The notes under the pieces: generated by a model | Told to the model about the DNA's origin: nothing | The model's database searches: none | What the model saw: the letters and a program-made list of their open reading frames with translations, nothing else | Source: Neoscytalidium dimidiatum | Taxonomy: Eukaryota > Ascomycota > Dothideomycetes > Botryosphaeriales > Botryosphaeriaceae | Assembly (NCBI GenBank): GCA_037367355.1 | Contig: CM074702.1 | Coordinates: forward strand, 1,550,001-1,614,000 | Length of the DNA stretch: 64,000 nt | Reading direction: 5' to 3' | Program-made: the position numbers and the translations under genes | Shown: positions 35,939-63,457 of the stretch, piece after piece | How the letters are laid out: each line of letters starts with the position of its first letter | How positions within the stretch are numbered: position 1 is the stretch's first letter

Positions 35939-36003
35939 GCTCAATTCGTCAACGACTCCCCCCATGATAAGCTTTCTGCCTGTCTCACCGGGCGCCTTTC
36001 ACT

Positions 36004-39455: not shown

Positions 39456-40691
39456 ATGTCAAACAAATCCACAGTCCTCATTGTCGGCGCAGGCCCGGTA
39501 GGATTGATCCTCGCGCTGCGCCTGGCCCTTGCAAATATCGATGTCGTCGTCATCGAGGCTCAGAATGACCTCGACGACGCCCCAAAAGCGATGGCACACA
39601 TGCCGTCCGCCTTTCCAGAATTCAAAAAGGCAGGCATATTCGGAGACCTTATCGCCGAAGCTGGAGAGCTGGCTAACACGACTGTTGCATTCCGGAGGAC
39701 TTCCGACTCGTCCATCATTTTTGCGCCCCCACCGAATCCTGCCGGGCCGGGTGTACTAATCATACCTCAAGGAAAGCTCAACAGAATAGTATATGAGCAT
39801 GTCAAAAGGCACGATAACGCAACTGTACTGCTTGGCCATACGCTCCGGTCCGTGGACGACTCGTCGCATGATGTCATCAAGGCAACCGTGGCAACGCCTG
39901 ATGGATCCGAGAAGACTTTCGAAGCTTCCATTCTCGTGGGTGCGGATGGAGGAAAAAGCACCGTGAGGAAGCTGTCAGGGATCCAGTTTGAAGGAGAGAC
40001 GCTGCCCTGTCAGCTTGTTGCTTCAGACGTCTACTACGATTTTGCCAAGTACGGAGGGTTCAAGCATGCCAATTTCATGACAGACACGGAGCACTACGGC
40101 ATGATTGGTCAGATCACAAGTGATGGACTTTGGCGCGTGTCGTTCAGCGTCCCTCTGGGCTATGACTTGAATGACATTGAGGCTGTAGCTCCGGAAAAGT
40201 TTGAGGCCATGATGCCTGGGCCGAGGCCACTGGAGTACAAAATTCATCGTCTCGCACCGTACAAGGCGCAACAACTCTGCGCGACGACCTTCCGGAAAGG
40301 CCGCGTTCTCTTAGCTGGAGATGCGGCGCATCGTGAGTCAATCGGCCCCAGACGAGTAGATCAGTGCAAGCTAATGTTGAGCATAGTGACCAACCCGTAC
40401 GCAGGCTGGGGCATGGCTGCTGGCATTTTCGACGCTGGCAGCCTGGCAGAGGCTCTGGTATCTCATCTAAAACATGGAACTCCGGAGGGTATTCTGGATG
40501 CTTGGGCCAATGCGCGGCGCAGCACGTTCCTTGAAGTCATCGACCCAATCTCCCGGGATTGTTTTTGGGCGATGCAGGATCCTGATGTGGACTCGCTACA
40601 TATGAGGCATCCGCTCATCAAAGCTATGAGGGCTGGGAAGCCTCCGGTCATAGCTACTGACGTGACGCTGCTTGAAGGATTTGTGTCATAG
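39456..40691 (+). CDS. FAD-dependent aromatic monooxygenase (FAD_binding_3 family)
   Basis: Flavoprotein hydroxylase of 393 aa. Exons are 39456-40332 and 40387-40691. The 54-nt intron (GTGAGT...CATAG) is in frame, so an unspliced reading stays open but breaks GDAAHL-TNPYAGWGMAAGIF. I chose the ATG at 39456 because it gives MSNKSTVLIVGAGPVGLILA with the GxGxxG dinucleotide fold at residues 11-16. The central DG motif is LVGADGGKSTVRKLSG and the FAD ribose motif is VLLAGDAAHLTNP, so all three class A monooxygenase signatures are present. Family members hydroxylate salicylate-, anthranilate- and phenol-like substrates. In this neighbourhood a deaminating anthranilate 3-hydroxylase giving 2,3-dihydroxybenzoate is an attractive but unproven role. 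The alpha/beta hydrolase gene converges on it only 87 bp downstream. Confidence 0.92.
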   Translation: MSNKSTVLIVGAGPVGLILALRLALANIDVVVIEAQNDLDDAPKAMAHMPSAFPEFKKAGIFGDLIAEAGELANTTVAFRRTSDSSIIFAPPPNPAGPGVLIIPQGKLNRIVYEHVKRHDNATVLLGHTLRSVDDSSHDVIKATVATPDGSEKTFEASILVGADGGKSTVRKLSGIQFEGETLPCQLVASDVYYDFAKYGGFKHANFMTDTEHYGMIGQITSDGLWRVSFSVPLGYDLNDIEAVAPEKFEAMMPGPRPLEYKIHRLAPYKAQQLCATTFRKGRVLLAGDAAHRESIGPRRVDQCKLMLSIVTNPYAGWGMAAGIFDAGSLAEALVSHLKHGTPEGILDAWANARRSTFLEVIDPISRDCFWAMQDPDVDSLHMRHPLIKAMRAGKPPVIATDVTLLEGFVS

Positions 40692-40778
40692 GTTGGAAAC
40701 TTCTCTGGTCATTTGGCTGCGCAATTATCAATTTGATTCTGTACCGATATAAGCCTTGTTGGATGGTTTCGGCAATAT

Positions 40779-41638
40779 TTACGACTTAACCTTCTCGAGT
40801 CCCTCCTGAACTGCAGCCTCGATTCCGTCTAGTACTTGATCAGGCACAGAGAGAAAAGCCGAATGAGAGCCGGTGTTCCTTCGGATGGTGCCACCGAGAG
40901 ATTGGGCCATGGCCTCTTGAACAGGTGGGACAAGGATCGTGTCGCCGTCACTGATAAAGTACATGCAGGGGATTTCGTGCCATGGCTCGTAGGTGGATGT
41001 GCCAGCAAAGACCGCGCCAGCAGTGTGCGTGAGGCGAGCGGCCCATTTCTGCTGCTCAGACGGAGAGAGGTCTGGAAAAGCCGTCTCGGACGGCAGGTCG
41101 GCGAAAACTTTGGGTCCCTGCGATTCTAAGATGGCTGGGTTGCTTGCAGCAGCGGGCTAGGACGTACCTCAATTCTCATGAACGGCAAAGGCTGACCACC
41201 GAGCATGTCAAGCAAACTTTTTCCCTTAGGCAGGGCGAATGCGGAGAGATAGATAATTTCGAGGATTCCGCCCTTCTTCCCCTGGCTGGCGCGCTTCTTT
41301 GCGCCGAAGCCCTCGCTGGCGCAGGAGCCGACAACTCCGCCTGAGGACTGATGGTGAGTGAGTGGACGGTATGCTGACAGACGGAACGTACCGTAGGAGT
41401 GCAAGAGGACAACAACGTGTTTAAGCTCGTCGTCAATCAGACGTGCGAGAGTGCCCCTCAAAAAGGCAACATCGGTCTCCAGAGTTTGGTCTGCGGGCTC
41501 GCTGCCGACAGAAGGATGGTCGACAGCAACCGACTCGTAGCCCTTCTCGGTAAGCAGACGGCGCAGAGGACCGAAAGCGTCCGATGGCTGCCAGGCGCCA
41601 GGCACAAGCAAGATGGTTGGCTTGGATCCAGCAGTCAT
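40779..41638 (-). CDS. Alpha/beta hydrolase
   Basis: Cytosolic alpha/beta-hydrolase-fold enzyme of 252 aa. Exons are 41638-41392, 41340-41168 and 41117-40779. I chose the ATG at 41638 because it places TILLVPGAWQPSDAF at the usual distance from the N-terminus; the frame upstream has only GTG. The nucleophile motif VVLLHSYGGVVGS (Ser in HSYGG) is formed across the first intron (GTACGT...CCTCAG). The acid is in ISDGDTILVPP and the histidine in GSHSAFLS, so the triad is complete. The fold resembles methylesterase/hydroxynitrile-lyase-like members of the superfamily. It is not the HGGxW-type kynurenine formamidase. Still, no other formamidase is seen near the dioxygenase and kynureninase, so hydrolysis of a formyl or ester intermediate is a reasonable guess only. 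Confidence 0.9.
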
Positions 41639-42713
41639 GGCGGCGAGGGTTGCTATGGGAGACTTTGGCACCAGAGCGGGTAGCTGGAGGGCATCTTAAA
41701 TGGAGAGGAGACAACGGCCCGCGGCGGCATGGTGGGGCAGGAATGAAGTGAGACAGACAAGCTTGAGTCGTGGCACCGGGAGGTGTGGGCTGTTTGGGTG
41801 AGCAATACTGCCGTGGAAGTCATCCGAGGCCGTGCTGGGGTGCTGAGGAGGCCGAGTTTGGATGGGGATGAGCTGCCTTCCGCAGTGAGGGCTTAGTGGG
41901 CTTAGTGCCTCTACGCGCAGCAGCCCATCTTCCGACTTCCGCTGCCAACAACGCGCCCGAACTCACCGAGACGCAGCCGCTTGCTCTTTGACCCACTCAC
42001 CTCATCCACGCGTAGGACCTCACGAACTCTGCCGAACATACCGAGTCGCGCTCGGCATTTCTTGTCAATCGCGACCTCATTGCAGATACGCACCGAGGCC
42101 TACCGATCAAGACCTTGATCGTGATCTGCGAACCCTTCCGCCGCTCACCCCTCTTGAAAACTTAGCGCCCTTCCACTACCCGACGCTTCCACCTCCATGG
42201 CACGCCGCTTGTGGGTTTGCCGCGCGTTATCATATTCAACCTTCCGAACGACGCGCGCCCAGTGTGTGCGTGCGTTTTATGTCACCCCATTCGCCTGATG
42301 TTCCTCATTTGTCCGCTTGGTGAGTCAGTCATCGTCGCACCAACCCCCGCCCCGATCGTCTCGACCCTTAACTTTCCTGCGCATCACCCGCAGTTTTCCG
42401 CGTGGCAGAACCGTATTAGTCTCTTGCCCGCAACCTTCTCCCCGCATCCGATGGATATCTGGAGCCTCGTAAAATTGCCTATCATATTATTGGCTCACGG
42501 ATTACCAAGACAGGAAATTCATTCACAGCTGAGCACAATTACAACTATAAACCCAGTCCCACACTTTCTTCTCAAACCACGCCCGAATACCGAAGATCGC
42601 GCCTTCAGTTTTTTGTTTTCGTGCCCATTTACTTTCATGCGAAGCGTGCCAGGTCCTGCCTAGCTGAAAAGGACCAAAGAAAAACCGGGCCAGAAACCAG
42701 GTTTCCGAAATTG
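41639..42713. other. Intergenic region between hydrolase and Zn2Cys6 gene
   Basis: About 1.1 kb with no supported gene; holds the hydrolase upstream region and the 3' end of the regulator. Confidence 0.45.
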
Positions 42714-43509
42714 TCAGGAAAGAAGTTCGTCGATGGACAAACACCGCCCCTTCTTCGTGCTTGGAAGGGGAGCTTTTCTGATCTCGTCTCTGCGCACGTC
42801 TGGCCCGGAAGGCCCCTCCCCAATTATCCATTTGCTGCCCTCCGAAGCGAAGGGGTCCTTCCAAATGGGAAAGGACGGAGTATCGGGCGGAGTTCCTGCT
42901 CCTGGGAGCATCGAGCTCCGCAAATCCGCCCTTTGACAAGACGACATTTGCGAAGACGTCGAATCTCTCCTCAAGAACTGCGACGACGTCGAATCTCTCC
43001 TCGAGAACTGGGGCGAAGTGGCATCTCTCCCAGGAAGTGACCACGAGGAATCTCTTCTCAGCGGGAGAGGTAGTAGCGTTGGCCTGTCGAATCTTGGGAC
43101 AAGCTGTTGTTGAGAAAAGTGCGAATGCGACCCGTGCGCAGGCGTGGCATTTGCCTCGACTTTTGGAGCAATTTCAAATCTGGCGTTCATGAGTATTTGT
43201 GGAGAACTCTGGACTCGACAATACTCACGTAGGTTTGCTGATGTTGACATCGTAGATTCGTGGCCTGCCTCTCTTCTTGTGCTCCGGGTCGAAGCAGTCC
43301 GTCTGTGCCGGAGAAGGAGGTCAGTCAAGTCTCCAGTAGCACCGTTTGGATGGTGTGAGACTCACTCCTCTGCCAGATGCAACGCAACGCTTACAAGGGC
43401 GTTGGTCCTCGCACCGAGCATGAAGCCTGCGACAATGGTTGCAGGCAGAGTTCACGGGCACTGATGGCCTTCTCGTCTTGGGCTTATAATGCAGCGATGC
43501 ATCATCCAT
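42714..43509 (-). CDS. Small Zn2Cys6 transcription factor with RRDS repeats
   Basis: Protein of 227 aa. Exons are 43509-43366, 43302-43229 and 43179-42714. The cluster is C-x2-C-x6-C-x5-C-x2-C-x8-C in ACNHCRRLHARC...PCKRCVASGRGTDC. Its sixth Cys is supplied by exon 2, which confirms the first intron (GTGAGT...GCACAG). KKRGRPRIYDV follows and looks like an AT-hook or nuclear localisation signal. The ATG at 43509 is the first in frame; the frame extends upstream only through a TTG. The C-half is Ser-rich and holds three near-identical 10-aa units around RRDSTSSQF, then ends TKKGRCLSIDELLS. There is no fungal_trans middle-homology domain, so this is a short regulator, perhaps a partner or competitor. 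It sits between the hydrolase and the tryptophan synthase and could be pathway specific. Confidence 0.85.
42955..43044 (-). repeat. Three 30-bp tandem units inside the Zn2Cys6 coding sequence
   Basis: Units at 42955-42984, 42985-43014 and 43015-43044 keep the frame and encode 10-residue repeats centred on RRDS or the diverged GRDA. The first two units are almost identical at DNA level, which points to recent duplication. Confidence 0.75.
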
Positions 43510-46500: not shown

Positions 46501-46589
46501 CTAAGACTCTTCGTGAGTATTATTTATCTGTCTCTGTGCAGCCGCACTGGCAGCCGCCTTCAATCCCTTCAATTACTGATTCCGCAATC
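43510..46589. other. Long intergenic region upstream of tryptophan synthase
   Basis: About 3.1 kb containing the upstream regions of two divergent genes and a T run at 44248-44266. A minus-strand frame starting at ATG 46489 (first residues MPILPGPTPSPESLSALVEN) looks somewhat protein-like. I could not connect it to further exons and do not call it. Confidence 0.45.
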
Positions 46590-49252
46590 ATGAACCACAT
46601 TAGAAATGTCTTCCAGAGGTGCAGGGACGAGCAAAGGGTGAGACCAGCCTGCGTCTTTCACCTTCTGTACCCAATCAAGGAGCGCTGACGGCAAAACCAG
46701 TCCGCACTTATCGGCCATGTCACAGCCGGATACCCCGCTGTTGCAGGGACACCCGACGTCCTCCTCGCCCTAGAGGCGGGTGGAGTTGGTGAGCGCGCAC
46801 TCTACCCATAGATCCAAGCCGTCTTCTCCAAGTTGCTAAATCGCGCTGCAGATATCATTGAACTTGGCGTGCCATTTACGGACCCCATCGCAGACACTCC
46901 AGCCATCCAATCTGCCAACATGGTAAGCAGTCAAGACAAGTCTTCCTCCTCACCCACCCCAAGAGCAAAAAGTGCGCTAAGCGGGCGGTCCGGTATTTCT
47001 AAGAGCGTAGAGCTAACCGTCACTTCGCGCGAACATAGAAAGCGCTGTTGAACGGAGTCAAGATGAACACCTGTTTGGAAATGGTGCGGACAGCCCGGGA
47101 CAAGGGGCTACACGCTCCGGTGCTCCTGATGGGCTATCTGAACCCTTTCCTTAGCTACGGCGAAGAGAAGATGATCAAGGATGCACGAACCGCGGGCGTC
47201 GATGGCCTAGTCATCCTCGACGCCCCGCCCGAGGAGGCGGTTCGGCTCAGGAACTACTGCACGAAATATGGGTAAGGCTACGTACCGCGCGTCTGATCCG
47301 TAGAGGCGCGGATTAATCCCACATTCGGCGTGGCTAATGCAATTTGCAGAATTTCCTACGTCCCGCTCATTGCCCCCACCACGGACGAGGCTCGTCTTGC
47401 ACTTCTCGGGAGAATCGCGGATTCCCTCATTTACGTGGTTCCTGGTGGGACTCCGAAGTCGGAGCTGCCCAAGCTGCTCAGCAGGGTGCATCAGTTCGCG
47501 GACAAGATGCCAGTTGCCGTCAGATCAGAGCCGCAGACACAGCAAGAATTCTTGGAGGTGGCCACTGTGGCTGAGGGCATCGCTACCGCGGATCCTTTGG
47601 CTTATGTGCTGGGAGAGGCGCGGGCGGGCCAGGCTGCCGCCGATGTTAAGGAGCACTGCGCCCTCATCAGCGGGAGGCCGCTCAACCAATCAAAAGCCAA
47701 CTCCGGATATAAGAGGACGGACAGTGGCACTGCTCTGGTCGACCAACTGGAGGCGCTCCATGTCGACCAAGACGGGAGCGCGACGATCGACAGCGGAACG
47801 CGCATCGAAGGCTTTGGCGGCCAGTACGTGCCGGAGGCGTTGATGGGTTGTCTGGCGGAGCTCGAGTCGGGATTCAAGGCCTGCATGGACGACCCAGCGT
47901 TCTGGGACGATTTTCGATCTCACTACGCGTTTTTGGGACGTCCAGGCCAGTTGCACAAGGCGGACCGCCTCACGGAGCACGTTGGGGGAGCTAACATCTG
48001 GCTAAAGCGGGAGGATCTGAACCATACAGGAAGCCACAAGATCAACAATGCATTGGGCCAGGTAGGCAGCCTCGTGAAACCGCTTTGCAACAAGAGACGA
48101 AAAGCATCATAGCAGACCTGCTAACGCACCCCTCGCTTGGTGTGGCAGATCCTACTCGCACGGCGACTGGGCAAGAAGGAAATCATCGCGGAAACCGGCG
48201 CTGGCCAGCATGGTGTAGCGACGGCCACCGTATGCGCTAAGTTTGGCATGAAATGCACCATCTACATGGGCGCTGAAGATGCGCGACGCCAAGCTCTGAA
48301 CGTCTTCCGCATTAGGCTATTGGGTGCTGAGGTGGTGCCCGTCGAGGCTGGGTCGAAGACTCTGCGCAACGCCGTTAATGGTAAGTTCTCTTGCTTTTTC
48401 CGAAGACGCTGCTTTCCCAACATTTTAACTTTCCCCTATGATGGTTCGCTGATGAAGCTACTACAGAAGCGTTGCAAGCTTGGGTTGCGAACCTGTCCAC
48501 CACCCATTACCTCATCGGTTCCGCCATCGGACCCCACCCGTTCCCGCAAGTATGACCACCCGTCCTGTTCCCTTGGATGATCCTATAATACTCCTTCTGA
48601 TATTGAGCCCCACTAACCCCTTCGCGCCTTTACCCAGATCGTCCGCACTTTCCAGAGCGTCATCGGCCAGGAAACCCGGGCCGCGATGCTCGAAAAGGCC
48701 GGCAAGCTGCCTGATGCCGTCGTGGCCTGCGTGGGCGGCGGCAGCAACGCGGTTGGCATGTTCTACCCCTTCGCACAGGATGAAGGCGTTCACATGCTGG
48801 GCGTCGAGGCGGCGGGCGACGGCACCGACACGGCCCGGCACAGCGCGACGCTGACCAACGGCACGGTGGGCGTGCTGCACGGTGTGCGCACCTACCTGCT
48901 GCAGGACGCGGACGGCCAGATCCTCGACACCCATTCCATCTCTGCCGGCCTCGACTACCCGGGCGTCGGCCCCCAGATGTCCGCCTGGAAGGCTTCTGGC
49001 CGCGCCTCTTTCGTCGCCGCCACCGACGCGGAGGCCCTGCGCGGCTTCCGCATGCTGAGCCAGCTTGAGGGCATTATCCCGGCCCTCGAAACTTCGCATG
49101 CCGTCTTCGGCGGCATCGAGCTCGCGCGGAAGCTGGGCAAGGGCAATGATGTGGTTATCAACATCAGCGGCAGGGGCGACAAGGATGTCCAGACCGTGGC
49201 GGAGGAGCTGCCCAAGCTCGGTCCGCAGATTGGGTGGGATCTTCGGTTTTGA
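46590..49252 (+). CDS. Fused tryptophan synthase with degenerate alpha domain and intact beta domain
   Basis: Fungal-type alpha-beta fusion of 693 aa. Exons: 46590-46637, 46701-46788, 46852-46922, 47039-47271, 47350-48061, 48149-48380, 48467-48549 and 48638-49252, all in phase. In the alpha half Glu49 and Asp60 keep their places ([15 protein letters not shown]), but the mobile loop that normally reads like SRMGVTGATGTLN is shortened to PGGTPKSEL (about 178-186). The GFGxS phosphate loop is replaced by RSEPQTQ, and the second phosphate site (normally IGS) reads TAD. Binding of indole-glycerol phosphate therefore looks lost. The beta half is fully conserved: [21 protein letters not shown] Lys377 in [10 protein letters not shown], Glu399 in [38 protein letters not shown] and ISGRGDKD. 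It should make tryptophan from free indole and serine. The genome presumably has a normal copy elsewhere. Its setting beside kynureninase and a dioxygenase suggests a catabolic or specialised role. Confidence 0.93.
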
Positions 49253-49650
49253 TCTGTCTGTGTTTCTTCCTCTTTCTCGAATATGTATGCAGATGCTCCG
49301 TTATAGATATCAACCTTGATTCAAGTTGTAGTAGTTTCTGCCTTTGGCTGTAGTGATCAAAAACTGCCTCAGTCTATTTTAACAACGAACTCAAGCTCTC
49401 GTATACATACGTCAAGCCTTGACACTACAGTTTGGTCATGAGGCAGAGAATTCTTCTTCCCCAAAACAGCGCTATGCCCAAGATAGGACTGAGACGAGAG
49501 TTGCTGCACCAAACATGACCACTGACGTATTGGTCGTACCATTGAAGTTTCGGGTACTCCGATATGGGAGACAATGGGGTAGAAATGACCTGGACGCTAA
49601 TTCGGCTTCAGATACGCTTTACCATTTGCAAACCAGCAGCAGCTTGACGG

Positions 49651-49688
<38 letters not shown>

Positions 49689-50106: not shown

Positions 50107-52603
50107 TCACTGACCAAACGTCCACCAATCATCCACGCCTCTAACGAAATCCTGACCCTGCGCGAAGTAGCTCTGAGCTAGCACTGCTAGCTCATCGTTA
50201 TCCCCCATGCCTAAAGCCATCGAACCCATAACGTCCCCTCTGCCTCCTCTACCGCTGCCTCCCGTCAACGCCGTGCCAGGCGTAGAGACGCTGTTCCGCG
50301 AAGCACTATCGCCCCTGGGATAAGTAGGCTCTGGCAGAAGACGGGAACTGACAACTTCGCCCCTTGACGCGGTTGCCATGCTGCGGTGTGGTGGCCACAG
50401 CGACGATCCGAAGAGGGACCCTGCCGTGTCGGCGGTGTCGGAGGTGAAGACTGCTTCGAGGATCTCCCAGAAGGTGGTCAGGTCGATGAATACGGAGCTC
50501 TGGATGGTGTCTGGGGAAGGCGAGGCCGCAGAGTCATGGTACGAGGCGGAGACAGTGGCTTCGAAATTTTGGAGCTTGGAGGCCTGGATCGAGACGTGTC
50601 AGCGACCTCACGGTTGCGCAATGGACTGGCGATGCCTTACAATTTGAGCTACTTGCGGCCAGTATGTGCCCAACTTGCGTACGAAGTTCAAGCATTTCAA
50701 AAAATTGTTGCGTTTCTCGTTTCGTATGCCGGCGTCGTCCGCGAAGCTTTGTTGTAGGTAGATGGTTGCAACCACAGCCACACAATTACCAATGAATGGG
50801 TCGGTAACTCTAAATGACTTATCTTCAAGGATATCCAGGAAGTGAATAACCCAGTCCGTATGGGAGGCGATCAGATCCGCCGTATGCTGGAGGAAGATCT
50901 CCGGAATGCTGACTCTGAAGCTCCGTAGCCGTAGTGAGAGGATCAGCGGATGGTTCAAGAGGCACATGATTGTATGGTATATCATCTGAGAGAATAACCA
51001 GGGGCACCAGTAATCTCTCTGCTTCTCAAGCTCATCTGTTGGCCTTTCTGCAAATTTGGACGGCCGGAACCTGTGCTTGTAAGGCATATGTGATTCAAAC
51101 TCCATCATAGATACCATGATCCTGGAATATTCGGACTCGGCAGACCATGGTGCGTGAACACCGGGATTCGCACGTCGCCGCGCGTAACGGACCGTCTTAT
51201 GCCAGTATTCGCTCAATTGAATGACGTATGCAGTGATTCCTTCATCCCGTGGCCCATCTTGAAAGTTCCTCGAGTCTGAGCCGGGATCAGGGGACGGAGG
51301 TTTCTTCGCACTTGTCGGGTATTTTGGGAGATTCTCGTCTGCAGATATTGAGTAGACACCGCAGGTGCTGCCGTGGAGCTTCTTCAGGAAAAGAATGCTC
51401 CAGAAGCAGCGTCTCCTCTCTTCATGAGCGGAATCTTGTAACGCAGTATGGCATTCGGAGGAAAGTCCGGCACTTTCAGCGAGATCAATGGCCAAGGAGT
51501 TTAGCGAACTCGCTCTGTGAGTGTTTCCATCTACCCGTCTCGTTAGCAAGCTGTTTGTCCCCACATGGAAATAGACGCATACGTACTGCTAAAATCCACG
51601 AGGCTCAGAAGGCACAAAGCCTGTAGGGTGGAAAGTTCTACGGGTCCATGAGACAGCCGCCGCATGACCAGAGTGCGGGCAGCCTCTGCATATCCCCGTA
51701 CAGCTGGGCCGTGCCTATCTCGATACAAAGGATCATCTGAGAAACGTACGGCCGTAGCCAAAATAGCAAACAAAATCTCAGGATCCCTTGTTCCGAGAGT
51801 AGGTATGAAATTCTTAGAGTCGAATAGTGGGAGGGGCTGGCAGTTGCAATAAGCAAGATACAGCTCTGCTACGGAGACAATGGTGTCCCATGGCGGCAGC
51901 GTGCTCGTTCCAAGTCAGCTTAGAGGTAAGCACCGGTGTCGGGCAGACTGACGAACCTTGCAGTTACGGGCGGTGATTGGTGGTCCACCGCTGGTGGACA
52001 AGTGGTCAGACTAGCAGACGGAGTGGGAGTGGGCGGGCTCGCAGTCCATGGCATACGACTGACGCAGGGTCAGCAAATGGGCGGTTTCATTGAAGGCGGA
52101 AGCGGCACGAACTTGAGAGCACCGAGCACCTCGGCTACCTTCGTCTCCAAAACACTCAATCTATCGGCCTGCAGCGGAGAGGACGATCAGCGTTTGCACA
52201 TCAGAACAGGAAAAATGAAGCGGACACACCCAAGGGCCAGGCGGGCCGTAAGCGGAGGAGGCCGGAGGATCAGCAGCCTCGCTGACGCTTCCGTGTCGGT
52301 CCTGCGGCTCGCGGGAAGCATCGGTGCTGGAGACGCTGGCGGCGGTGGTGTGATAGCTTTGGTCACTCGCGGCCGGATGGTCAGTGGCGTAGTAACAGGT
52401 CTGACCAAGACGGGAGCAGTGAGAGCAATTGGGACGTTCTCCCGGACAACGTGATTTCTTGCGACTTTGGGGTTGGATGGCGAAAGTCAGTGCTCGCGCA
52501 AAGGCAGTTGTGCGGTTCCGTGAGGCTGGACTCACCGGCACGGCTCACAGGCCTGGCGAATGCGCTTGGCGGGGCGGTGCTCCGGCGGAGGTACGGAAGA
52601 CAT
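50107..52603 (-). CDS. Zn2Cys6 transcription activator with fungal_trans domain
   Basis: GAL4-type regulator. Supported exons are 52603-52536 (MSSVPPPEHRPAKRIRQACE...), 52464-52230, about 52168-52080, about 51903-51587, 51530-50641 and 50583-50107. The cluster is C-x2-C-x6-C-x6-C-x2-C-x6-C (ACEPCRRKKSRC, PNCSHCSRLGQTC) and is created by splicing exon 1 to exon 2. A short helix (DRLSVLETKVAEVLGAL) follows and probably dimerises. The middle-homology domain runs from LPPWDTIVSVAELYLAYCNC through ALCLLSLVDFSNGNTHRASS and ERRRCFWSILFLKKL to about residue 600. The C-terminal tail ends DWWTFGQ, Trp- and acid-rich as in activation domains. The junctions between 52080 and 51903 are unresolved: one frame there ends in TGA and no clean donor was found. 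It lies between tryptophan synthase and kynureninase and is the best candidate for the pathway regulator. Confidence 0.87.
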
Positions 52604-53123: not shown

Positions 53124-54620
53124 TCAGATTCCGATCGCGCCCTTGAACGTCTTGACAAACGCGTACACGTCCGAGTACGTGTTGTATAGCGGCACAGGCG
53201 CCACCCTCACGACGTCCGGCTCGCGCTGGTCTGCAACAATGCCTGCCTCGTGCAGTGCCTTGGACACGTTCTTCAGCAATCCGGGCGCCAGCAACACGCT
53301 CAATTGCGCGCCACGCTGCTGAGGGTCAAGCGGGGTGATGATACGGTACGGCCGCTTCTCCTCCTCTGCCGGCAGGTCTTTCAGGAGGAGGTACTCGGCG
53401 TATGCCGTCAGCTGCAGCGACTTCGCCCGCAGCTCGTGTATCGACGTCTCCTCAAACACCGACAGCGCGCCGAGCAGGGAGGTCAAGTCGATCGCCGACG
53501 GGTTCGAGCACTGGAATCCACCCGCCCCGGGGATGGGCCGGAACTCTGCCATCCGTTAGTTCGCTGGCCCCCCGCCTCCTCACGAGGAGATACTTACTGT
53601 TGTCCATCTTGAACCGCACCGCCCGGTCTCCGCCATACCATCCAGTAAGACGCGGTCTGAAGATGGGCTGTCCGTCGGACCCGAACTCCACCTTTCCGTG
53701 CTTCTCGTGCACAAAGCACCCGGCGATCGCTCCTGGTCCGGCATTCTGGTACTTGTACGTGCACCAGGCTGCGAAGTCAACATCCCAGTCGTGCAGCTGC
53801 ACCGGCACGTTGCCCGCCGCGTGCGCAAGGTCCCAGCCAATGGTCAGGCCCTTGGACTTGGCATGCGCCGTGATGGTGGGAATGTCGAAGAACTGCCCGC
53901 TGTAGTACTGGATGCCCGGAAGAAGAATGAGCGCAATCTCGTCGGCATGCTCATCGATGGCCCGCAGGATCTTCTCGGTCGAGATGATGTGGTCGTTGTC
54001 AGGCTCGAGGAGAATCATGTTCTCCTTCGGGTCCAGCCCACGCACTTGGAGTTGGCTCTCGATTGCGTAGTGGTCACTGGGGAAAGCTTTCCACTCCAGC
54101 AGTATCTTGGTGCGCTGACCCTCTGGCTTGTAGAAGCTAGCCATCAACAGGTGCAGGTTGACCGTGAGCGTGTTCATGATGGCAACCTCCTCGGGCTTAG
54201 CGCCGACAATCTTGGCTGACTGCTCCGCCGCAGTCTCGGCCATCAGCTGCCATGGCTTTAGCGGAGACTCCTCGAGAGGCGTGAAGTGGCCATGGACGCC
54301 GATGCCTGACCAGGTGTCCAGCTGAGCTTCAATATACTTCGACACTGCTCTGGGCTGCAGACCCAGCGAGTTGCCGCAGAAGTAGATGCTGTCCTCCGGC
54401 GAAAGACCTGGACCTAATCAGCATTGGCTCAGCAAAGCGCTCGATTGGACTGCGTACCGGGCTTTGCCAAGACCTTAGACCTCAGATTGGCTTTGGAAGG
54501 GATGATGAACTTTTCCCGGAAAGAGCGCAGCGGATCTTGCGAGTCAAGCAGGCGCGCATAGCTCTCGCTATCCGCGTCCGCCGGGAACTGCGGCTTGGAC
54601 TCGACCTTGGAGGGAGACAT
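53124..54620 (-). CDS. kynU: Kynureninase
   Basis: PLP enzyme that cleaves kynurenine to anthranilate and alanine (or 3-hydroxykynurenine to 3-hydroxyanthranilate). 464 aa, normal length. Exons are 54620-54458, 54407-53598 and 53545-53124. The introns start GTACGC and GTAAGT; splicing gives [20 protein letters not shown] and [21 protein letters not shown] chose the ATG at 54620 ([13 protein letters not shown]); the frame stays open further upstream to 54827 only through a GAAGCGG-type repeat. Landmarks are [45 protein letters not shown] (Asp247) and the PLP lysine Lys273 in [13 protein letters not shown]. In many homologues the residue after KY is Leu; here it is Gln. It is divergently transcribed from the indoleamine dioxygenase with 400 bp between the two ATGs, which suggests co-regulation. 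Enzyme specificity (kynurenine against 3-hydroxykynurenine) cannot be read. Confidence 0.95.
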
Positions 54621-55020
54621 AGTTACCAGAAGGAGAAATAATTCGTTTGGTGCTTGGCCTTGGTAAGTCCCTGCCTGTGGTGTGATGCTCTTATCATTCA
54701 CCTGAATCCTGTCGTATGCCGCTGACGCGTGCTGCACTTTCGCAGCCACTTTGTAGATCGCCCGCCTGAGCTCCGCCTCCGCTTCCGTATCCGCTTCCGC
54801 TTCCGCTGCCTCCCGCCTTTTGCCCATTGCTCCGGAGAAGGCCCTATCACACCATCCCTCCTCATTGGCTCCTGAGCTACGGGATGATATTACTCTGCTG
54901 AATGCACGCTAGGTTTACACCTATGTCAGAACTGTCCAGCTTGGCGCATCGTTCTGTTCATTCATTCCTGTCCTGTTAGCCTTATCGTAGCGCACCACCG
55001 AGAACCTCGCCGCCTGCAAA
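54621..55020. promoter_or_regulatory. Bidirectional promoter of kynureninase and indoleamine dioxygenase
   Basis: The two start codons are 400 bp apart on opposite strands. A CCAAT word (read on the minus strand, 54864-54868) lies near the middle, and a pyrimidine-rich leader precedes each gene. The minus side also carries a GAAGCGG-type simple repeat (about 54757-54805). The arrangement itself is certain; use of the CCAAT word by a HAP-like complex is inference. Confidence 0.5.
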
Positions 55021-56433
55021 ATGCTCGACAATCTGGACTGCAACCTCTCTCACTATCAGGTCTCCCATGAAAATGGTTTCCTGCCAGACGAACTGCCGCT
55101 GCAACGCCTCTCAGATCCGTACTATGCCGAGTGGGAATCGGTGATTGAGGCTCTGCCCAGCCTTCTCCGCAGCGGCGAGCTCATTCCGGCCATCAACGAC
55201 CTCCCTATCCTCCAAACCTGCAAGCTCATATCTGAGGAGGAATGGCGGAGAGCATACGTCATCCTGGCCTTTTTTACACACGCATACGTTTGGGGTGGAG
55301 AGAAGCCGTCGGAGGTATGCTCCAAAAATGCTCCTCAAAAGTTCCGCTGACTGGTTGGAAGGTTCTTCCTCCGTGCGTCACTGTCCCATTTCTCGATGTT
55401 TCCGAACATCTTGGACTTCCGCCAACGGCCACTTACGCAGCCCTGAATCTCTGGAACTACAAGACCGTTGACCCCAATGTGCCGTTATCCGTACCCGAGA
55501 ATCTTCGTGTGCTCCACAGCTTCACTGGCACAGATGACGAGGCATGGTTCTACCTGATTTCCGTTGCCATCGAATCGCGAGGCGCTCACTCTCTCCCGCT
55601 AATGATCCAATGCATCGATGCCGCAAGGCGAGGCGACCACTGGAAAGTCGTCCAGGGCTTGGATGCTCTGAGAGTGTGCATCAACGAACTTGGCGTCATC
55701 CTGGAGCGTATGTACGAGAAGTTGGACCCGCAAGTGTTCTATTTCCACATCCGCCCTTTTCTGGCTGGAAGCAAGGGCATGGCCACTGCTGGTTTGCCCC
55801 GAGGAGTCTTCTACGACGAGGGCGACGGAAAGGGCGAATGGAGGCAGTACAGTGGAGGCAGCAACGCGCAAAGCTCGCTCATTCAATTCTTCGACATCAT
55901 TCTAGGCGTCCAGCACTACTCCGGTGGAGAGCTCATCAAGAATAGCTTCATCGAAGTGCGTTGTTTTCGGTTCTCTGCTCACTTGATGACATTGTCGAGC
56001 TGACACAAAATTAGGAGATGCGCTTGTACATGCCTGGCTCTCACAGGCGCTTCCTTCAGTATCTCGGTCATGCTTCGAATATCCGGGAATATGCACTGAA
56101 CCCTGCTACCGAAAACACGGTCCTTGAAGCCTACAATGCAGCCGTCGCGGCCCTTGCTGCGTTTAGAGATAAGCACATTCAGATTGTCACGAGGTACATC
56201 GTCATGCCTTCGCGCATGAAGGCGCCGAAGACTAGCACAGTCAACATTGCATCTGCATCATCCATTCAGGACGGCGAGGATAAGGCAGATAAGAAACTCT
56301 ATGGCACTGGTGGCACGGTAAGAGCATTGTTCACTACGAGTCTGGAACTATTACTGATCCTAAATATTAGGCCTTAATGCCCTTCCTAAAGCAGACAAGA
56401 GATGAGACGAAGAAGGCGGCAAACGCAGCATGA
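55021..56433 (+). CDS. Indoleamine 2,3-dioxygenase family protein
   Basis: Heme dioxygenase that opens the indole ring of tryptophan to N-formylkynurenine. Exons are 55021-55314, 55362-55955, 56015-56317 and 56371-56433, giving 417 aa. All introns are phase 0 and begin GTATGC, GTGCGT and GTAAGA. Comparison with human IDO1 from memory shows the key positions kept. Phe and Arg of FYFHIRPFL match Phe226 and Arg231. Ser in WFYLISVAIE matches Ser167. His350 in RDKHIQIVTRYI matches the proximal heme ligand His346. The GTGGT loop before LMPFLK is also present. EMRLYMPGSHRRFLQYL and GGSNAQSSLIQFFDIILG are further family blocks. Fungal genomes often carry several IDO paralogues (alpha, beta, gamma) with differing tryptophan affinity; I cannot place this one with certainty. 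It is divergent from kynureninase, consistent with a joint route to anthranilate. Confidence 0.95.
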
Positions 56434-57149
56434 TACCACCGGTTGCGATTTTTTCTTTCTCTCTTCTCTTCTTTCTTTTGGCATCAAGTATTCTGACGTG
56501 ACAAATAAAGGGGGGCTACGCACAGAGCGCTCCGGGAAAAGGCGTTTGTACGGGTCATTGGAATTCTTGATTTGACTGCGGCACAGCACAGTAGAGCAAA
56601 CGAGTAATAGATTGCGTCACAAGAACCTCAACTTCTGATTGCTTAATGGTTCGTGCCTGGGATTGTGATGTTCACGGGTTCGTGTGTGGTCCGGATGTCT
56701 TCCGCCGGCGGCCGGATGAAATTGAGCCGCCAATAGGCGAGGCAACGGGGCCGGCACTCACGGCATATGCGCCCCTCCAGCCATTTGAGGCTCACATACA
56801 TGAAGATTACGTCATTTTTTCTGGAGCAAGAAGGTGCTTGCATGTTTCTTTGCATAATCTAAAATAGAATGCAGCAAACGAACGCGATGGTAAAGCGTAA
56901 CGCACAAGCCGCTGCTCCCCAGAGACCGACACATCACTAAGACAACCACTTCTTTGCAGCAACTATCAATTTCTCGAGTGCAATAACGGTGCATGAGTTG
57001 TTTGTTCGCTTCTGCTATACCTGGTAAAGCGACAAAGATCTGCATGCGCGGTAGTCGCATTTGTCAAGGCGGGGAGCAACCCAGAGCACAGCTCGATATC
57101 GGATGTTGAGCAAGTATCAAATGGAATTGGTTTGGATATCTAGCTTTCG
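56434..57149. other. Convergent intergenic region
   Basis: About 0.7 kb between the dioxygenase and the decarboxylase 3' ends. A 73-codon plus-strand frame at 56646-56867 starts with ATG but has no recognisable motif and no splice partner. Confidence 0.45.
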
Positions 57150-59599
<2,450 letters not shown>

Positions 59600-61321
59600 T
59601 CAAAGCCGACGAGCTGACTCGGATCTTCGTTTGTGAGCCTCCTGGTCGACCTCTTCACCCCACTCGAACGTCTGCTTAACCATGATCCCATTCCTGTGTT
59701 CGCCATCGCCGGAGTGTCCCGTCTCTTGCGTTTGTATACTCGCGCCGCTGCTCGCTTGTGCCTTAGTCGTGAGCTGTATTTCATCGTCCTCACGAAGCTT
59801 GAGGTTTTCTCCATGACTACCGCTCAGTCGGCTGAGCACCCGATGTCTTGTACTGCTCTTATTCAGCTCCAATGCCTCGCCTTCCGCATCAATTTGTGTG
59901 CCGAGCTGCGTTCCAAACTGCGAGTCACCAAGGGTAGTGAGACCAGTGTGCTTCTTGATCGGGCGGGTGCGTTTCTTGGAGATCGTTTCGAGTGCTGATG
60001 GTTCTGAGTGTTGGGTCGGATCGGATTGGTTCGCACTGCCGATGTATTTGCCAAGGAATTTCATGAACATTGGGCGCAGTGTCGGCAAGCAACCCGAGAT
60101 GACTGCAACGCTTGGCTCGCATGATGACCAGATGAATACATCGCTCTTGGCCCAACTGATGTCCATGGTCTGTGTCAGTGCCCAGATGACCTTGATGCGG
60201 ATGATCGAAGCAATGCAGACACTGCGAAGAGAAGGACTGTTAGCCTCGCCTATATTCTGGTTCACGAACAATTCGAAACGTACAAGCCACCTAGTAAGAA
60301 GATGAGGTAGATGGCGGCCTTTTCTCTCCTCGTCAACTGTAGCTTCCAGATCTCCGGAATGGGAATCGAAAGAATGAATATGTCACCAAGGAGGTTCATG
60401 ATGCCAATACCAAGGTAGAAGTAAGCCTCATTAATTGGGCAGTTGCCGGTTCCTGGCGAGCTCCATTGCTCCCAGTAGTACTTCAGAGGATCGCAGTAAA
60501 GTGGAAGCACGACGTGGTTGATGATCAGATATGCGGCCGTGAGTCCCATACAAAAATATCCGAACCGGTTGGGGCCGAATATTCGACGGTAGAACATGAT
60601 GAATGAGAATTTGATGATGCAGACGCTGTAGGCATAGATGTATACGTATGCGAACGTGATCTACACCACTTCATCAGCTCAGCTTGATTGTCCGCATCAG
60701 ACAACAATTTACTTACCACCGTGATCTTCTCCATATAATAGGGGCTAAGGGACCATATGTGCTTGCCGAGGCCGTAGAAACCGCCTGTCAAAGACGGTTG
60801 TCAGTGAATGGTTGCTTGTGTGACACATGTCGTAGAGTGCGGTCTCGTCGCTATAGATGGCAATGTTGTAGAGGGCAGTCTTGTCGTTACGAATGGCAAC
60901 GACGCAGATTCTGCTAGAGAAAGCGTTGAAGGAGGAAGAGCATCCCAGTGGCCGACCGAAGCATCAGTACAGAGGTGCGTGTTCACATATGAGGCGTGCG
61001 GGAACGTAGGGCGATTCTACAACACGTACCGGCAATGCAACAGGCTAAGTTTCCTGCGCACAAAACCTGACTTGGGAGATTAGCCTCCCCGGACGATTTG
61101 GCAGGCGAGGAAAGTCTACTCACCCAGCCCATGCCCATGAGATAGTCATCCCAATCCATACCAACACGCTGGAAGAGAAAGCGTGCGATCAAGCGCAGAC
61201 CCATAGCTATAGTAGCTAGACTGAACAGCACGATTCCGATGGCATTGTTAGAAGTAGTCCGAGATTCGGTGAGATCGAGGCCCGGTGGAGGCTCGCCGAT
61301 CAGAGCGTTGGTCCACACCAT
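59600..61321 (-). CDS. PTH11/rhodopsin-like seven-transmembrane protein
   Basis: Integral membrane protein of 433 aa of the fungal rhodopsin-domain (PTH11-like, CFEM-less) group. These are thought to act as receptors or sensors at the plasma membrane. Exons are 61321-61124, 61066-61030 (37 nt), 60784-60717, 60660-60284 and 60221-59600. Seven hydrophobic stretches are visible, from AIGIVLFSLATIAMGLRLIA through ITFAYVYIYAYSVCIIKFSF, GYFCMGLTAAYLIINHVVLP and YFYLGIGIMNLLGDIFILSI to the last, in the SDVFIWSSCEPSVAVISGCL segment. Family hallmarks are DDYLMG, GLGKHIW, FYRRIFGP, LPLYC, REKAAIYLIFLLGGF and CEPSVAVISGCLPTLRPMF. A cytosolic tail of about 150 residues, rich in Ser, Thr, Gln and Lys, follows. 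Intron 2 (60785-61029) is long and carries a tandem repeat. Ligand unknown; the setting suggests it could sense a pathway metabolite, which is speculation. Confidence 0.9.
60829..60900 (-). repeat. Two-copy 36-bp imperfect tandem repeat inside an intron
   Basis: Units 60829-60864 and 60865-60900 align without gaps over all 36 positions and differ at about nine sites, mostly transitions. The repeat lies in the 245-nt second intron of the 7TM gene. Confidence 0.7.
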
Positions 61322-62299
61322 GATGGCGCTATGCAGACGCGAGCAAGGCGGCAGGGGAAGGGATGGTCCGGATCAGGGTCATGAGCGAAAAGTCATAGAG
61401 GTAATTGAGATTCTCTCGTCACTGCGGATGCCCGGTGGTAGGAGGATCTGGAAGGGAGGAGAAGCCAAAGTTCTCCCCACAAAAAGTCAAAGCACGAAAG
61501 GAGAGGCCAAAGAGAAAAGATTAAATGAGCGAGGGCGCGGCTGGCAACGAGCATCACAACGCCTCTTGCGGGCCGCACATCAGGCCGATCGGGGCGGGTG
61601 CAGAGTCATGGAATCGGTGATGAGAGGGGCAAGGTCAACCTCAGAATTCGAGCCGGGCAGGGCTCATCAGCGATGGAAACGGCACAGTGCTTGACACGAC
61701 GCTGGCGGAAGCGTATCCGGCGAGAGCAGATCGGGAAAAGGCTGGTGTCAGTGCGGCATGGGAAGCAACGACGAGCAGGCTCAGATTGTCATGCAACGAG
61801 GTCGGAGAAATGGCACGCAAGAGGAAGCGAAGCGAAGCGGCGCGGTTGGGCGCGGGCGTGGGCGCGGGCGGGTCGAAGGCTCAGGAACAGGCCGGATGGG
61901 GAAGGGATGGTCTCTGTTTGGCAACGGCACCAACAATGACACCAACGCGGCAGGCTCGAGCGTGTCCCGCCATTCGCGCAGCTAGTCAGTTGGCCGCGGC
62001 CGGGCCGACCCCTACGACGGTGCGCTGCCCCGAGGCCGCCGTGCCGCCCACTGACCCACTGCGCCACTACGCCAGGGAACTCCCCCGCTCGCTGCAGTCC
62101 TGCGAATTCGCTTCGCCTGCCATAAGAGCACGATCGCTCATGCAGAACCGCCCTCTTGGGCCCTGTCTCTCCTCATCCTCCCAGACCTTTTCTTCGCTCT
62201 CAAGGTACCCCAGCCGATACTTGCAAAGCCGCACCGCTCATCTGCCCGACCTGCTGTCCTCTGCCCCGCCGTAGTGCCCCGTTTTCCAGCGCTGCAGCC
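61322..62299. other. Divergent promoter region between 7TM and nitrilase genes
   Basis: About 1 kb shared upstream region of the two divergent genes. Purine-rich with long overlapping open frames (for example 61598-61939 and 61687-62274) that have no motif support. The nitrilase frame is open upstream to 62156 but without family sequence. Confidence 0.45.
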
Positions 62300-63457
62300 A
62301 TGGCGCCGTCTGCAGTTGGGGCTCCCAGGATCAAACTGAAGGCTGCAGCTGTTCATGCCGCCCCGGTTTTCATGGACAAGAAAGCCACCGCTACTAAGGT
62401 CGTGCGCATCATCGAGGATGCTGGCAGTCAAGGCATTAAGCTCCTTGCTTTCCCCGAGACCTTCATCCCGGGCTACCCTGTACGTGACATCGCCCGCGAC
62501 CCGGATCGCCCTCCGCACTTGATATATGCGCCTCCAGCTCAGATCGACTGCTGACCGGTGCCGGCGCTTGTCAAGTAGTATTTCAGCGAGGCCTACCCTC
62601 CACTGCACCAAGTCGGAGCTCTGGCAAAGTATGCCGAGGAGAGTGTTGTGTGCGATGAGAGCGATGAATGCATCCGCAGCATCCAGGCCGCATGCCGCTC
62701 CGCCGGCGTGGCCATCAACCTCGGTGTCTCGGAGCGCATGCCCAACGGGTATTCCCTGTTCAACTCCCAGATTGTTATCGACGAGGATGGCTCCATCTTG
62801 GGCGTCCACCGCAAGATCCAGCCAACCTATGTCGAGCGCTACGTCTGGGCCCAAGGCAGCGGCTGGAGCCTCAGGGTGTTCAAGCCAAAACTTGGCTATA
62901 ACATTGGCGGTCTCTGTTGCTGGGAGAATACCTTCAACGGCGCTCGCCAAGCACTCATCAATCAGAACCAACACGTCCACGTGGGTGCCTGGCCCGCTTT
63001 GTCGACCATGCAGGGATTTCAGCCAGTTGCTGACTCGCAGATCGAAGCTCTGATGAAGACGCACGCTCTGACCGCCCAGGTGTTTGTGTTGAGTGCGGCG
63101 AATTACATCGATAAGCAGTGCCTCGATTGGATGGAGGAGAACCTCGGCAAGCAGGACCTGATCAAGGAGGGCGGAGGCTGGAGCGCCGTCATTCATCCCT
63201 TCTGCTCCTTCTTGGCTGGCCCGCACACCGGCTCCGAGGAAAAGCTTGTGACGGCCGAGCTGGACTTCAATGACCTGGGCCCGGTCAAGGTTTGGATTGA
63301 CGGCAACGGTCACTACAAGCGTCCCGAAATCCTCGACTTCAAGCTTGACACGAAGCCATTGTGGCCCAACGAGGGTGTTGTGCCCAGATTTCCGGAATCG
63401 TCTTTGAACGAAGCACCAAAAGTGGTTGATAAGGACGAGAAAGACCAACGGTCTTGA
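62300..63457 (+). CDS. Nitrilase (carbon-nitrogen hydrolase superfamily)
   Basis: Hydrolyses organic nitriles to carboxylic acid and ammonia. 352 aa. Exons are 62300-62479 and 62579-63457. The 99-nt intron starts GTACGT and ends AAGTAG. The acceptor must follow GTAG at 62577-62578, since using the AG three bases earlier would put a TAG in frame. Splicing joins FPETFIPGYP to YFSEAYPPLHQ. The catalytic triad is Glu53 (FPETF), Lys139 (VHRKIQPTYVERYVW) and Cys174 (GGLCCWENTF). The ATG at 62300 gives MAPSAVGAPRIKLKAAAVHA with the first beta strand in place. Length and motifs fit the aliphatic/aryl nitrilase branch rather than amidase or beta-ureidopropionase. Indole-3-acetonitrile is a known substrate type for some relatives and would suit a tryptophan-centred locus, but that link is inference. 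A long minus-strand frame over it is antisense shadow. Confidence 0.94.

What the first reader, a model, noticed from the sequence alone, without database searches (positions are those of the whole stretch)
39456..63457. Candidate tryptophan-kynurenine-anthranilate-catechol gene cluster
Kynureninase, an indoleamine 2,3-dioxygenase, 2,3-dihydroxybenzoate decarboxylase, a beta-competent tryptophan synthase, an FAD aromatic monooxygenase, an alpha/beta hydrolase, a nitrilase, two Zn2Cys6 regulators and a 7TM protein lie within 24 kb, with no unrelated housekeeping gene recognised between them. Known enzymology connects them: tryptophan to formylkynurenine (IDO), kynurenine to anthranilate (kynureninase), anthranilate to 2,3-dihydroxybenzoate (a flavin hydroxylase in A. 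niger), then to catechol (DHB decarboxylase). To my knowledge the kynurenine and DHB branches are usually described from scattered genes. A physically linked set with its own synthase would be new. The gene identities are seen; the pathway is inferred.
Basis: partly seen in the sequence, partly recalled or inferred. Interest (0 to 1): 0.88.

Follow-up and report, generated by a model that had tools for sequence, protein, structure and literature searches.

The report
Fungal tryptophan-to-catechol gene cluster
A plant-associated fungus carries, side by side, genes that look able to make tryptophan from free indole and then break it down toward catechol, including an odd tryptophan synthase whose first half has lost its usual phosphate-binding site; the pathway was known, but the grouping and the odd synthase appear to be a new variant.

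Summary
IDO and kynureninase are divergent neighbours 400 bp apart; their A. fumigatus counterparts have consecutive gene numbers, so that pair is old. The decarboxylase matches solved 2,3-DHB decarboxylases end to end. The only 3-hydroxyanthranilate dioxygenase hit in the genome has no recognised catabolic neighbours, so an anthranilate route is plausible. The new element is the tryptophan synthase-like protein (TrpS-like): a second gene beside a canonical one; its close orthologs (6 of 120 listed hits) are all Botryosphaeriaceae. Its alpha half lacks the loop 6, GFG and IGS phosphate motifs (absent in 6 of 6 orthologs, present in 25 of 25 canonical proteins compared), while four beta motifs are kept. 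Best reading: an indole/tryptophan catabolic cluster in which TrpS-like salvages indole. The anthranilate-to-2,3-DHB step is unproven: the flavoprotein is of PnpA/HspB type, and kynureninase residues do not favour anthranilate. Conserved linkage has only one weak support (Diplodia seriata). Verdict: new variant of a known kind.

The parts
39456..40691 (+). FAD-dependent aromatic monooxygenase, 393 aa, 2 exons, PnpA/HspB type
   Evidence: PF01494 2.4e-38; PDB sequence PnpA 1.5e-56, HspB 1.6e-42; model of the B. dothidea ortholog pLDDT 93.7, PnpA TM 0.87
40779..41638 (-). alpha/beta hydrolase (Abhydrolase_6); last intron uncertain; role (kynurenine formamidase?) not shown
   Evidence: PF12697 1.8e-18; model
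42714..43509 (-). small Zn2Cys6 protein, 3 exons placed by eye; possible regulator
   Evidence: PF00172 6.5e-06; sequence
46590..49252 (+). TrpS-like: fused tryptophan synthase, alpha half without phosphate motifs, beta half with its catalytic motifs; 693 aa, 8 exons
50107..52603 (-). Zn2Cys6 transcription factor with Fungal_trans domain; ends read by eye
   Evidence: PF00172 8.2e-06 and PF04082 2.7e-06; sequence
53124..54620 (-). kynureninase of the fungal kynureninase-2 group, 464 aa
   Evidence: TIGR01814 426.8 bits over cut-off 246.4; 92% to Diplodia intermedia
54621..55020 (.). 400-bp interval between the divergent kynureninase and IDO start codons
   Evidence: sequence; models
55021..56433 (+). 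indoleamine 2,3-dioxygenase, 417 aa, 4 exons
   Evidence: PF01231 exon hits; PDB IDO2 8e-63
57150..58291 (-). 2,3-dihydroxybenzoate decarboxylase, 341 aa, 3 exons
   Evidence: PF04909; 7wjr '2,3-dihydroxybenzoate decarboxylase' 8.3e-198, residues 1-337
59600..61321 (-). fungal rhodopsin-domain 7TM protein, 433 aa model; membership in the cluster uncertain
   Evidence: PF20684 2.9e-25; model
62300..63457 (+). nitrilase (CN_hydrolase), 352 aa; membership uncertain
   Evidence: PF00795 3e-28; PDB nitrilase 3wuy 4.5e-36

Best explanation
A dedicated catabolic cluster that takes indole/tryptophan toward catechol. TrpS-like, whose alpha half has lost the motifs that hold indole-glycerol phosphate, joins free indole (from the plant, other microbes or the fungus) to serine in its beta half (inferred). 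IDO oxidises tryptophan to N-formylkynurenine; a formamidase, perhaps the linked hydrolase, releases kynurenine; kynureninase gives anthranilate and alanine (inferred from families). A flavin hydroxylase, perhaps the linked one, makes 2,3-dihydroxybenzoate (least certain step); the linked decarboxylase makes catechol (family identity strong), which intradiol dioxygenases encoded elsewhere can open. The Zn2Cys6 factor(s) plausibly respond to tryptophan or anthranilate, as Rss1 does in Ustilago maydis (analogy only).
For: Linked genes with open models. Divergent IDO-kynureninase pair; A. fumigatus IdoB/Bna5 are Afu4g09830/Afu4g09840, and IdoB is suggested to be the more dominant IDO on tryptophan medium. 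A canonical TrpS (C4) and a second kynureninase (C2) lie elsewhere and can serve housekeeping. Decarboxylase matches solved 2,3-DHB decarboxylases over residues 1-337. The one 3-HAO hit (C10) has no recognised AMSDH/ACMSD neighbour in about 19 kb read by eye. TrpS-like: loop 6, GFG and IGS motifs absent in the window protein and 6 of 6 orthologs, present in 25 of 25 canonical proteins (25 of the 114 other listed hits were compared); beta motifs [30 protein letters not shown] kept in 6 of 6. Alpha half diverges faster (mean pairwise identity 85.4% against 93.9% in beta, 15 pairs; four canonical Botryosphaeriales proteins 95.4 and 95.2, 6 pairs). Intradiol dioxygenase-domain hits, best on C1 and C2. 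D. seriata TrpS-like (P0006) and FMO fragment (P0129) are both listed on a contig of 533,690 bases.
Against: No expression data or chemistry. FMO is PnpA/HspB type, and its relatives occur in fungi (Saccharata, Lophium, Rhizodiscina, Venturia) for which no TrpS-like appears in the capped list. Kynureninase keeps the residues of 3-hydroxykynurenine enzymes, as does the C2 copy. Hydrolase not assigned to formamidases. TrpS-like also has a fixed change in the beta half: LDYP(G/A)VGPQ in the window protein and 6 of 6 orthologs against LDYPGVGPE in 25 of 25 canonical, so normal beta activity is not certain. No promoter motif survives correction for 48 tests (best 0.008). Contig lengths do not show linkage of TrpS-like and FMO in N. 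parvum (1,173,371 against 814,420) or B. dothidea (627,487 against 1,837,091), though assemblies may differ. A tryptophan-making enzyme in a tryptophan-degrading set makes sense only if indole is supplied.
Confidence: 0.57

Rival explanations
1. A core tryptophan-catabolic set (IDO, kynureninase, decarboxylase, regulator) with TrpS-like as a regulatory or buffering paralog (for example re-making tryptophan from leaked indole), while FMO, hydrolase, 7TM protein and nitrilase are unrelated neighbours.
For: FMO, hydrolase, nitrilase and 7TM belong to large families; FMO is less conserved between Botryosphaeriaceae (74-80%) than kynureninase (92%) or TrpS-like (85-92%).
Against: TrpS-like and FMO share a contig in Diplodia seriata; no housekeeping gene was found within the set.
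Confidence: 0.25
2. A specialised-metabolite cluster that uses kynurenine, anthranilate or 2,3-DHB as building blocks, with these enzymes supplying precursor.
For: Extra copies of primary-metabolism genes, Zn2Cys6 regulators and tailoring-type enzymes are typical of such clusters (general knowledge, no call).
Against: No NRPS, PKS, terpene cyclase or prenyltransferase recognised among the models of the 84 kb (by inspection; only the proteins were run against Pfam); the decarboxylase destroys 2,3-DHB.
Confidence: 0.1
3. Salicylate or 2,3-DHB detoxification: FMO and decarboxylase act on plant salicylate/2,3-DHB, and the tryptophan genes are there because salicylate and anthranilate share a regulator.
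For: In A. nidulans dhbD and in A. [quoted passage not shown] U. maydis Rss1 responds to both salicylate and anthranilate (PMC5082525).
Against: FMO's nearest solved relatives are not salicylate hydroxylases; IDO, kynureninase and TrpS-like have no known role in salicylate breakdown.
Confidence: 0.12

Closest known systems
Fungal tryptophan-kynurenine-anthranilate-2,3-DHB-catechol route (A. niger, F. graminearum, Ustilago maydis)
   Same: Same enzyme families for tryptophan oxidation, kynurenine cleavage and 2,3-DHB decarboxylation; a Zn2Cys6 regulator (Rss1) senses anthranilate in U. maydis (PMC5082525 and PMC7842363, passages read).
   Different: In U. maydis rss1 and srg1 are divergent neighbours; whether the decarboxylase gene UMAG_12178 is near them was not stated in the passages I saw. 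Here IDO, kynureninase, decarboxylase and a TrpS-like gene are linked, and the FMO type differs from Srg1.
A. fumigatus idoB-bna5 pair (Afu4g09830, Afu4g09840)
   Same: IDO next to kynureninase, inferred from consecutive gene numbers in the gene table of PMC5786828 (passage read).
   Different: Orientation and further neighbours there were not examined; here the pair sits with decarboxylase, TrpS-like and regulators.
3-hydroxyanthranilate catabolic cluster of Ascomycota (PMC7842363)
   Same: A fungal gene cluster for catabolism of tryptophan-kynurenine intermediates.
   Different: It contains 3HAO, AMSDH and ACMSD; none was recognised in this window, and the genome's single 3HAO hit lies on C10 without recognised partners.
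Canonical fungal bifunctional tryptophan synthase
   Same: Same alpha-beta fusion, four beta motifs, and the Glu and Asp of the alpha stretch IELG...IAD.
   Different: Alpha half lost loop 6, GFG and IGS motifs and the Gly after the Asp; beta half has GPQ for GPE; separate clade (100/100 support, stem 0.9).

Membership tests
2,3-dihydroxybenzoate decarboxylase | End-to-end similarity to characterised 2,3-DHB decarboxylases, better than to sister decarboxylases | tested here: met
   7wjr, 7a19 and relatives, residues 1-337, E about 1e-197; salicylate decarboxylase 2e-122
Kynureninase | Over the curated equivalog cut-off with the PLP lysine region | tested here: met
   TIGR01814 426.8 against 246.4 bits; CTYKY aligned with human CSYKY
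Kynurenine-preferring (anthranilate-forming) kynureninase | Trp/Thr-type residues in place of human His102/Asn333 (numbering and rule recalled) | tested here: not met
   Window protein has His and Asn at these columns like human 3e9k; variant 7s3v has Trp and Thr. Fungal enzymes may follow another rule, so this lowers rather than excludes anthranilate formation
Indoleamine 2,3-dioxygenase | IDO family score, heme histidine and active-site Arg/Ser (roles recalled) | tested here: met
   PF01231 over cut-off; in the alignment with human IDO2 the His and Arg are identical and the window has Ser where IDO2 has Thr
Bifunctional tryptophan synthase, alpha fold | Score over the curated trpA cut-off | tested here: met
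   TIGR00262 145.4 against 102.35 bits, but only residues 8-177 match, ending where loop 6 should be
Bifunctional tryptophan synthase, alpha activity | Phosphate-binding loop 6, GFG and GS motifs | tested here: not met
   Absent in window protein and 6 of 6 orthologs; present in 25 of 25 canonical proteins
Tryptophan synthase beta | Motifs [30 protein letters not shown]; score over cut-off | tested here: met
   All four in window protein and 6 of 6 orthologs; TIGR00263 574 against 392 bits. Activity not tested
Anthranilate (or salicylate) hydroxylase | Closest relatives among characterised anthranilate/salicylate hydroxylases | tested here: inconclusive
   Nearest solved proteins are PnpA and HspB; no characterised fungal anthranilate hydroxylase sequence was at hand
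3-hydroxyanthranilate catabolic cluster | Linked 3HAO, AMSDH and ACMSD | tested here: not met
   The only 3HAO hit is C10:994040, not in the window; its neighbours read by eye from models not run against Pfam
Tryptophan-catabolic gene cluster | Conserved linkage in other species and co-induction | tested here: inconclusive
   Shared contig in D. seriata only; N. parvum and B. dothidea listings do not show it; expression not testable

The most novel reading that the evidence does not exclude
The alpha half of TrpS-like is not dead but repurposed: it keeps the acid/base Glu and Asp while the motifs lost are those of the phosphate pocket, so it could cleave a non-phosphorylated indole conjugate (for example a plant indole derivative) and pass indole through the tunnel to the beta half. 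The cluster would then be a complete funnel from plant indole compounds through tryptophan to catechol, special to Botryosphaeriaceae.
Probability: 0.12. Interest if true: 0.8.

Novelty: new variant of a known kind. Interest (0 to 1): 0.55.

Why it matters
It gives a compact, deletable gene set for testing how tree- and vine-associated fungi use indole and tryptophan, and offers a natural fused tryptophan synthase without the alpha phosphate motifs, shared by several genera of one fungal family, for studying alpha-beta communication without the normal alpha ligand. If confirmed it supplies a clustered counterpart, for the anthranilate branch, of the published 3-hydroxyanthranilate cluster.

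Tried and rejected
Rejected: chance co-location. Rejected: TrpS-like as the housekeeping synthase (a canonical gene is on C4). Rejected: TrpS-like as a decaying pseudogene (open coding models in six database species, 85-92% identity, though P0005 and P0006 lack the N-terminus and P0003 lacks a short stretch after GGGSNA). Not supported: FMO as a salicylate-hydroxylase-type anthranilate hydroxylase.

Led nowhere: a common promoter motif (best CGG-N4-CCG in 4 of 6 promoters, 0.008 before correction for 48 tests; three 9-mers and no 10-mer shared by 3 or more of 6, no control run for k-mers). The structure of the TrpS-like ortholog was of low confidence (pLDDT 72, pTM 0.56) and was not searched. 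Automatic gene models failed for the two regulators and for the C2 IDO. Direct synteny in other fungi could not be tested: the contig collections offered hold bacteria, archaea and viruses, and metagenome scans were capped at 0; I used listed contig lengths instead.

Literature: ten answered searches. I judged listed papers by title and start of abstract; two searches listed only 20 of 35 and 25 of 57 papers. None of the listed papers appeared to describe a fungal cluster joining IDO, kynureninase, 2,3-DHB decarboxylase and a tryptophan synthase; the library lacks most subscription journals. Passages were read in PMC5786828, PMC5082525, PMC6221969 and PMC7530617, passages and the Conclusions section in PMC7842363; no supplement was read.


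Full report
WHAT IS THERE. The window is C8:1550001-1614000 of an unnamed 43.76-Mb, 40-contig genome. The nearest listed relatives of its TrpS-like protein are from Botryosphaeria dothidea (92%), Neofusicoccum parvum (90%), Lasiodiplodia hormozganensis (90%, over 95% of the query), Macrophomina phaseolina (88%), Diplodia corticola (85%) and D. seriata (85%, over 90%), so the organism is very probably a member of Botryosphaeriaceae; I did not identify the species. I built spliced models with a small dynamic-programming script. In order: FMO (+), alpha/beta hydrolase (-), small Zn2Cys6 protein (-), TrpS-like (+), Zn2Cys6/Fungal_trans regulator (-), kynureninase (-), IDO (+), 2,3-DHB decarboxylase (-), rhodopsin-domain 7TM protein (-), nitrilase (+). 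Toward the low end the window holds ordinary genes: eRF1-domain protein at 10801-12087, a PF02133 permease at 12771-14372, an isochorismatase-fold protein at 17676-18542, LicD at 20089-21123, an ER-retention receptor at 25072-26227 and a flavin amine oxidase at about 35971-37673.

CORE PAIR. Kynureninase and IDO are transcribed away from each other with 400 bp between their start codons. Among 120 listed kynureninase hits (8000 scored) the best is one cluster of 23 sequences represented by Diplodia intermedia (92%); next is Aplosporella (74%), and many of the following carry the name kynureninase 2. So this belongs to a widespread second kynureninase rather than a local duplicate; the other locus of the genome is on C2. 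In A. fumigatus idoB is Afu4g09830 and Bna5 (KYNU ortholog) Afu4g09840 (gene table of PMC5786828, passage read); consecutive numbers suggest neighbours, so the pair looks ancient. Three IDO loci were found here; three ido genes are reported for A. fumigatus. The window IDO is 51.7% identical to the C12 copy (215 of 416). In the alignment with human IDO2 the presumed heme His and the active-site Arg are identical.

DECARBOXYLASE. The window protein aligns over residues 1-337 with solved 2,3-DHB decarboxylases and their close relatives (7wjr, 7wkm, 7a19; E about 1e-197), far better than with salicylate decarboxylase (2e-122). The next-best copy in this genome is 56% (C2:3568458), with no cluster gene among the two models of its 9.9-kb stretch.

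TRPS-LIKE. The genome has a canonical alpha-beta synthase on C4 and this second one. Against the canonical model, TrpS-like is 56.0% identical in the alpha half and 78.7% in the beta half. Six of 120 listed hits (7999 scored) are at 85-92%, all Botryosphaeriaceae; the other 114 are at 54-66%. I aligned the 6 with 25 of the 114. In the window protein and all 6 orthologs loop 6 (SRMGVTGAT) is reduced to PG, GFGVS reads RSEPQ or RSDPQ and VVIGS reads (I/V)ATAD; the loop 6, GFG and IGS motifs are present in 25 of 25 canonical proteins. The beta motifs [23 protein letters not shown] and SGRGDKD are kept in the window protein, 6 of 6 orthologs and 25 of 25 canonical. Against a wholly unchanged beta half: LDYPGVGPE (25 of 25 canonical) reads LDYPGVGPQ in the window protein and 5 orthologs and LDYPAVGPQ in P0006. 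The Glu and Asp of IELG...IAD are kept in the window protein and in 5 of 6 orthologs (P0006 begins later); the Gly after the Asp is Thr. Among the window protein and P0001-P0005 the alpha half averages 85.4% and the beta half 93.9% identity (15 pairs); four canonical Botryosphaeriales proteins give 95.4 and 95.2 (6 pairs). In a 19-row tree the seven TrpS-like proteins form one clade (100/100) on a stem of 0.9; its place among the canonical rows is unresolved. Curated models agree: trpB 574 bits (cut-off 392); trpA 145 bits, above its cut-off of 102, but matching only residues 8-177, stopping where loop 6 should be. The simplest reading is a synthase that lives on free indole.

WEAK LINKS. The FMO is closest to PnpA and HspB by sequence (1.5e-56, 1.6e-42) and by fold (model of the B. 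dothidea ortholog, pLDDT 93.7; PnpA TM 0.87, HspB 0.82). Its relatives run from Botryosphaeriaceae (74-80%) to Saccharata (57%), Lophium (53%), Rhizodiscina (51%) and Venturia (45-48%). In this genome its next-best match is 36-41%. PnpA and HspB oxidise ring carbons that carry a leaving group (recalled), so anthranilate is possible, but nothing here shows it. The hydrolase is a generic Abhydrolase_6 protein. The kynureninase has His and Asn at the two columns that in the human enzyme favour 3-hydroxykynurenine; the variant 7s3v has Trp and Thr there (numbering and rule recalled); the C2 copy has the same His and Asn.

ROUTE IN THIS GENOME. PMC7842363 (passages and Conclusions read) says that the 3-hydroxyanthranilate catabolic cluster is absent in A. 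niger and F. graminearum, where tryptophan is degraded through anthranilate, 2,3-DHB and catechol. Here one 3HAO hit was found, on C10; by inspection its neighbours in about 19 kb are a large helicase, a copper-transporter-like protein, a G-patch-like protein and others, not AMSDH or ACMSD (not run against Pfam). Intradiol dioxygenase-domain hits are strongest on C1 and C2. This fits a role of the window's set in the anthranilate branch. PMC5082525 (passages read) gives the regulatory precedent: the zinc-cluster protein Rss1 responds to anthranilate in a yeast assay, and rss1 deletion weakens growth on tryptophan in U. maydis.

CONSERVED LINKAGE. In the D. seriata listings the TrpS-like protein (P0006) and an FMO fragment (P0129) are both on a contig of 533,690 bases, which places them within 0.53 Mb. 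For N. parvum and B. dothidea the listed contigs differ in length; since a listing gives one longest contig per protein cluster and several assemblies may exist, this neither shows nor excludes linkage.

VERDICT. A real gene cluster whose core belongs to known fungal tryptophan catabolism. What is new is its combination with a 2,3-DHB decarboxylase and, above all, with a family-specific fused tryptophan synthase lacking the alpha phosphate motifs. No listed paper in ten literature searches (judged by title and start of abstract, lists capped) appeared to describe such a cluster; the library lacks most subscription journals. I rate it a new variant of a known kind, interest 0.55.

Noticed in passing
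window 35971-37673 +: Flavin-containing amine oxidase with a secretion-like N-terminus directly upstream of the FMO; could be the cluster's edge or an unrelated neighbour.
   Followed up: partly
window 17676-18542 +: Isochorismatase-fold, nicotinamidase-like protein 21 kb from the cluster; the N. parvum TrpS-like record (P0002) bears the name 'Isochorismatase-like protein', probably a database misnaming.
   Followed up: no
L001 (C12:558 kb) and L006/L007 (C2:1888 kb): Two further IDO loci; the C12 protein is modelled at 514 aa with a Ser/Pro-rich insertion, the C2 one is divergent and resisted modelling.
   Followed up: partly
database records P0001, P0030, P0054, P0055, P0063, P0092, P0100: Seven fungal tryptophan synthases are named 'anthranilate synthase / indole-3-glycerol phosphate synthase' in public records, a propagated misannotation.
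   Followed up: no
L053/L054 (C10:994040-994480): Only 3-hydroxyanthranilate dioxygenase hit in the genome, with neighbours that look unrelated.
   Followed up: yes
L055 (C2:3568458-3569525): Intronless 355-aa paralog (56%) of the 2,3-DHB decarboxylase, possibly a salicylate-type decarboxylase.
   Followed up: partly
L016, window coordinates 64977-65852 - (beyond the window): Alpha/beta hydrolase with a secretion-like N-terminus just downstream of the nitrilase.
   Followed up: no
TrpS-like beta half, window protein and P0001-P0006: Fixed GPE-to-GPQ change in the LDYPGVGPE stretch, unexplained; could touch beta specificity.
   Followed up: partly
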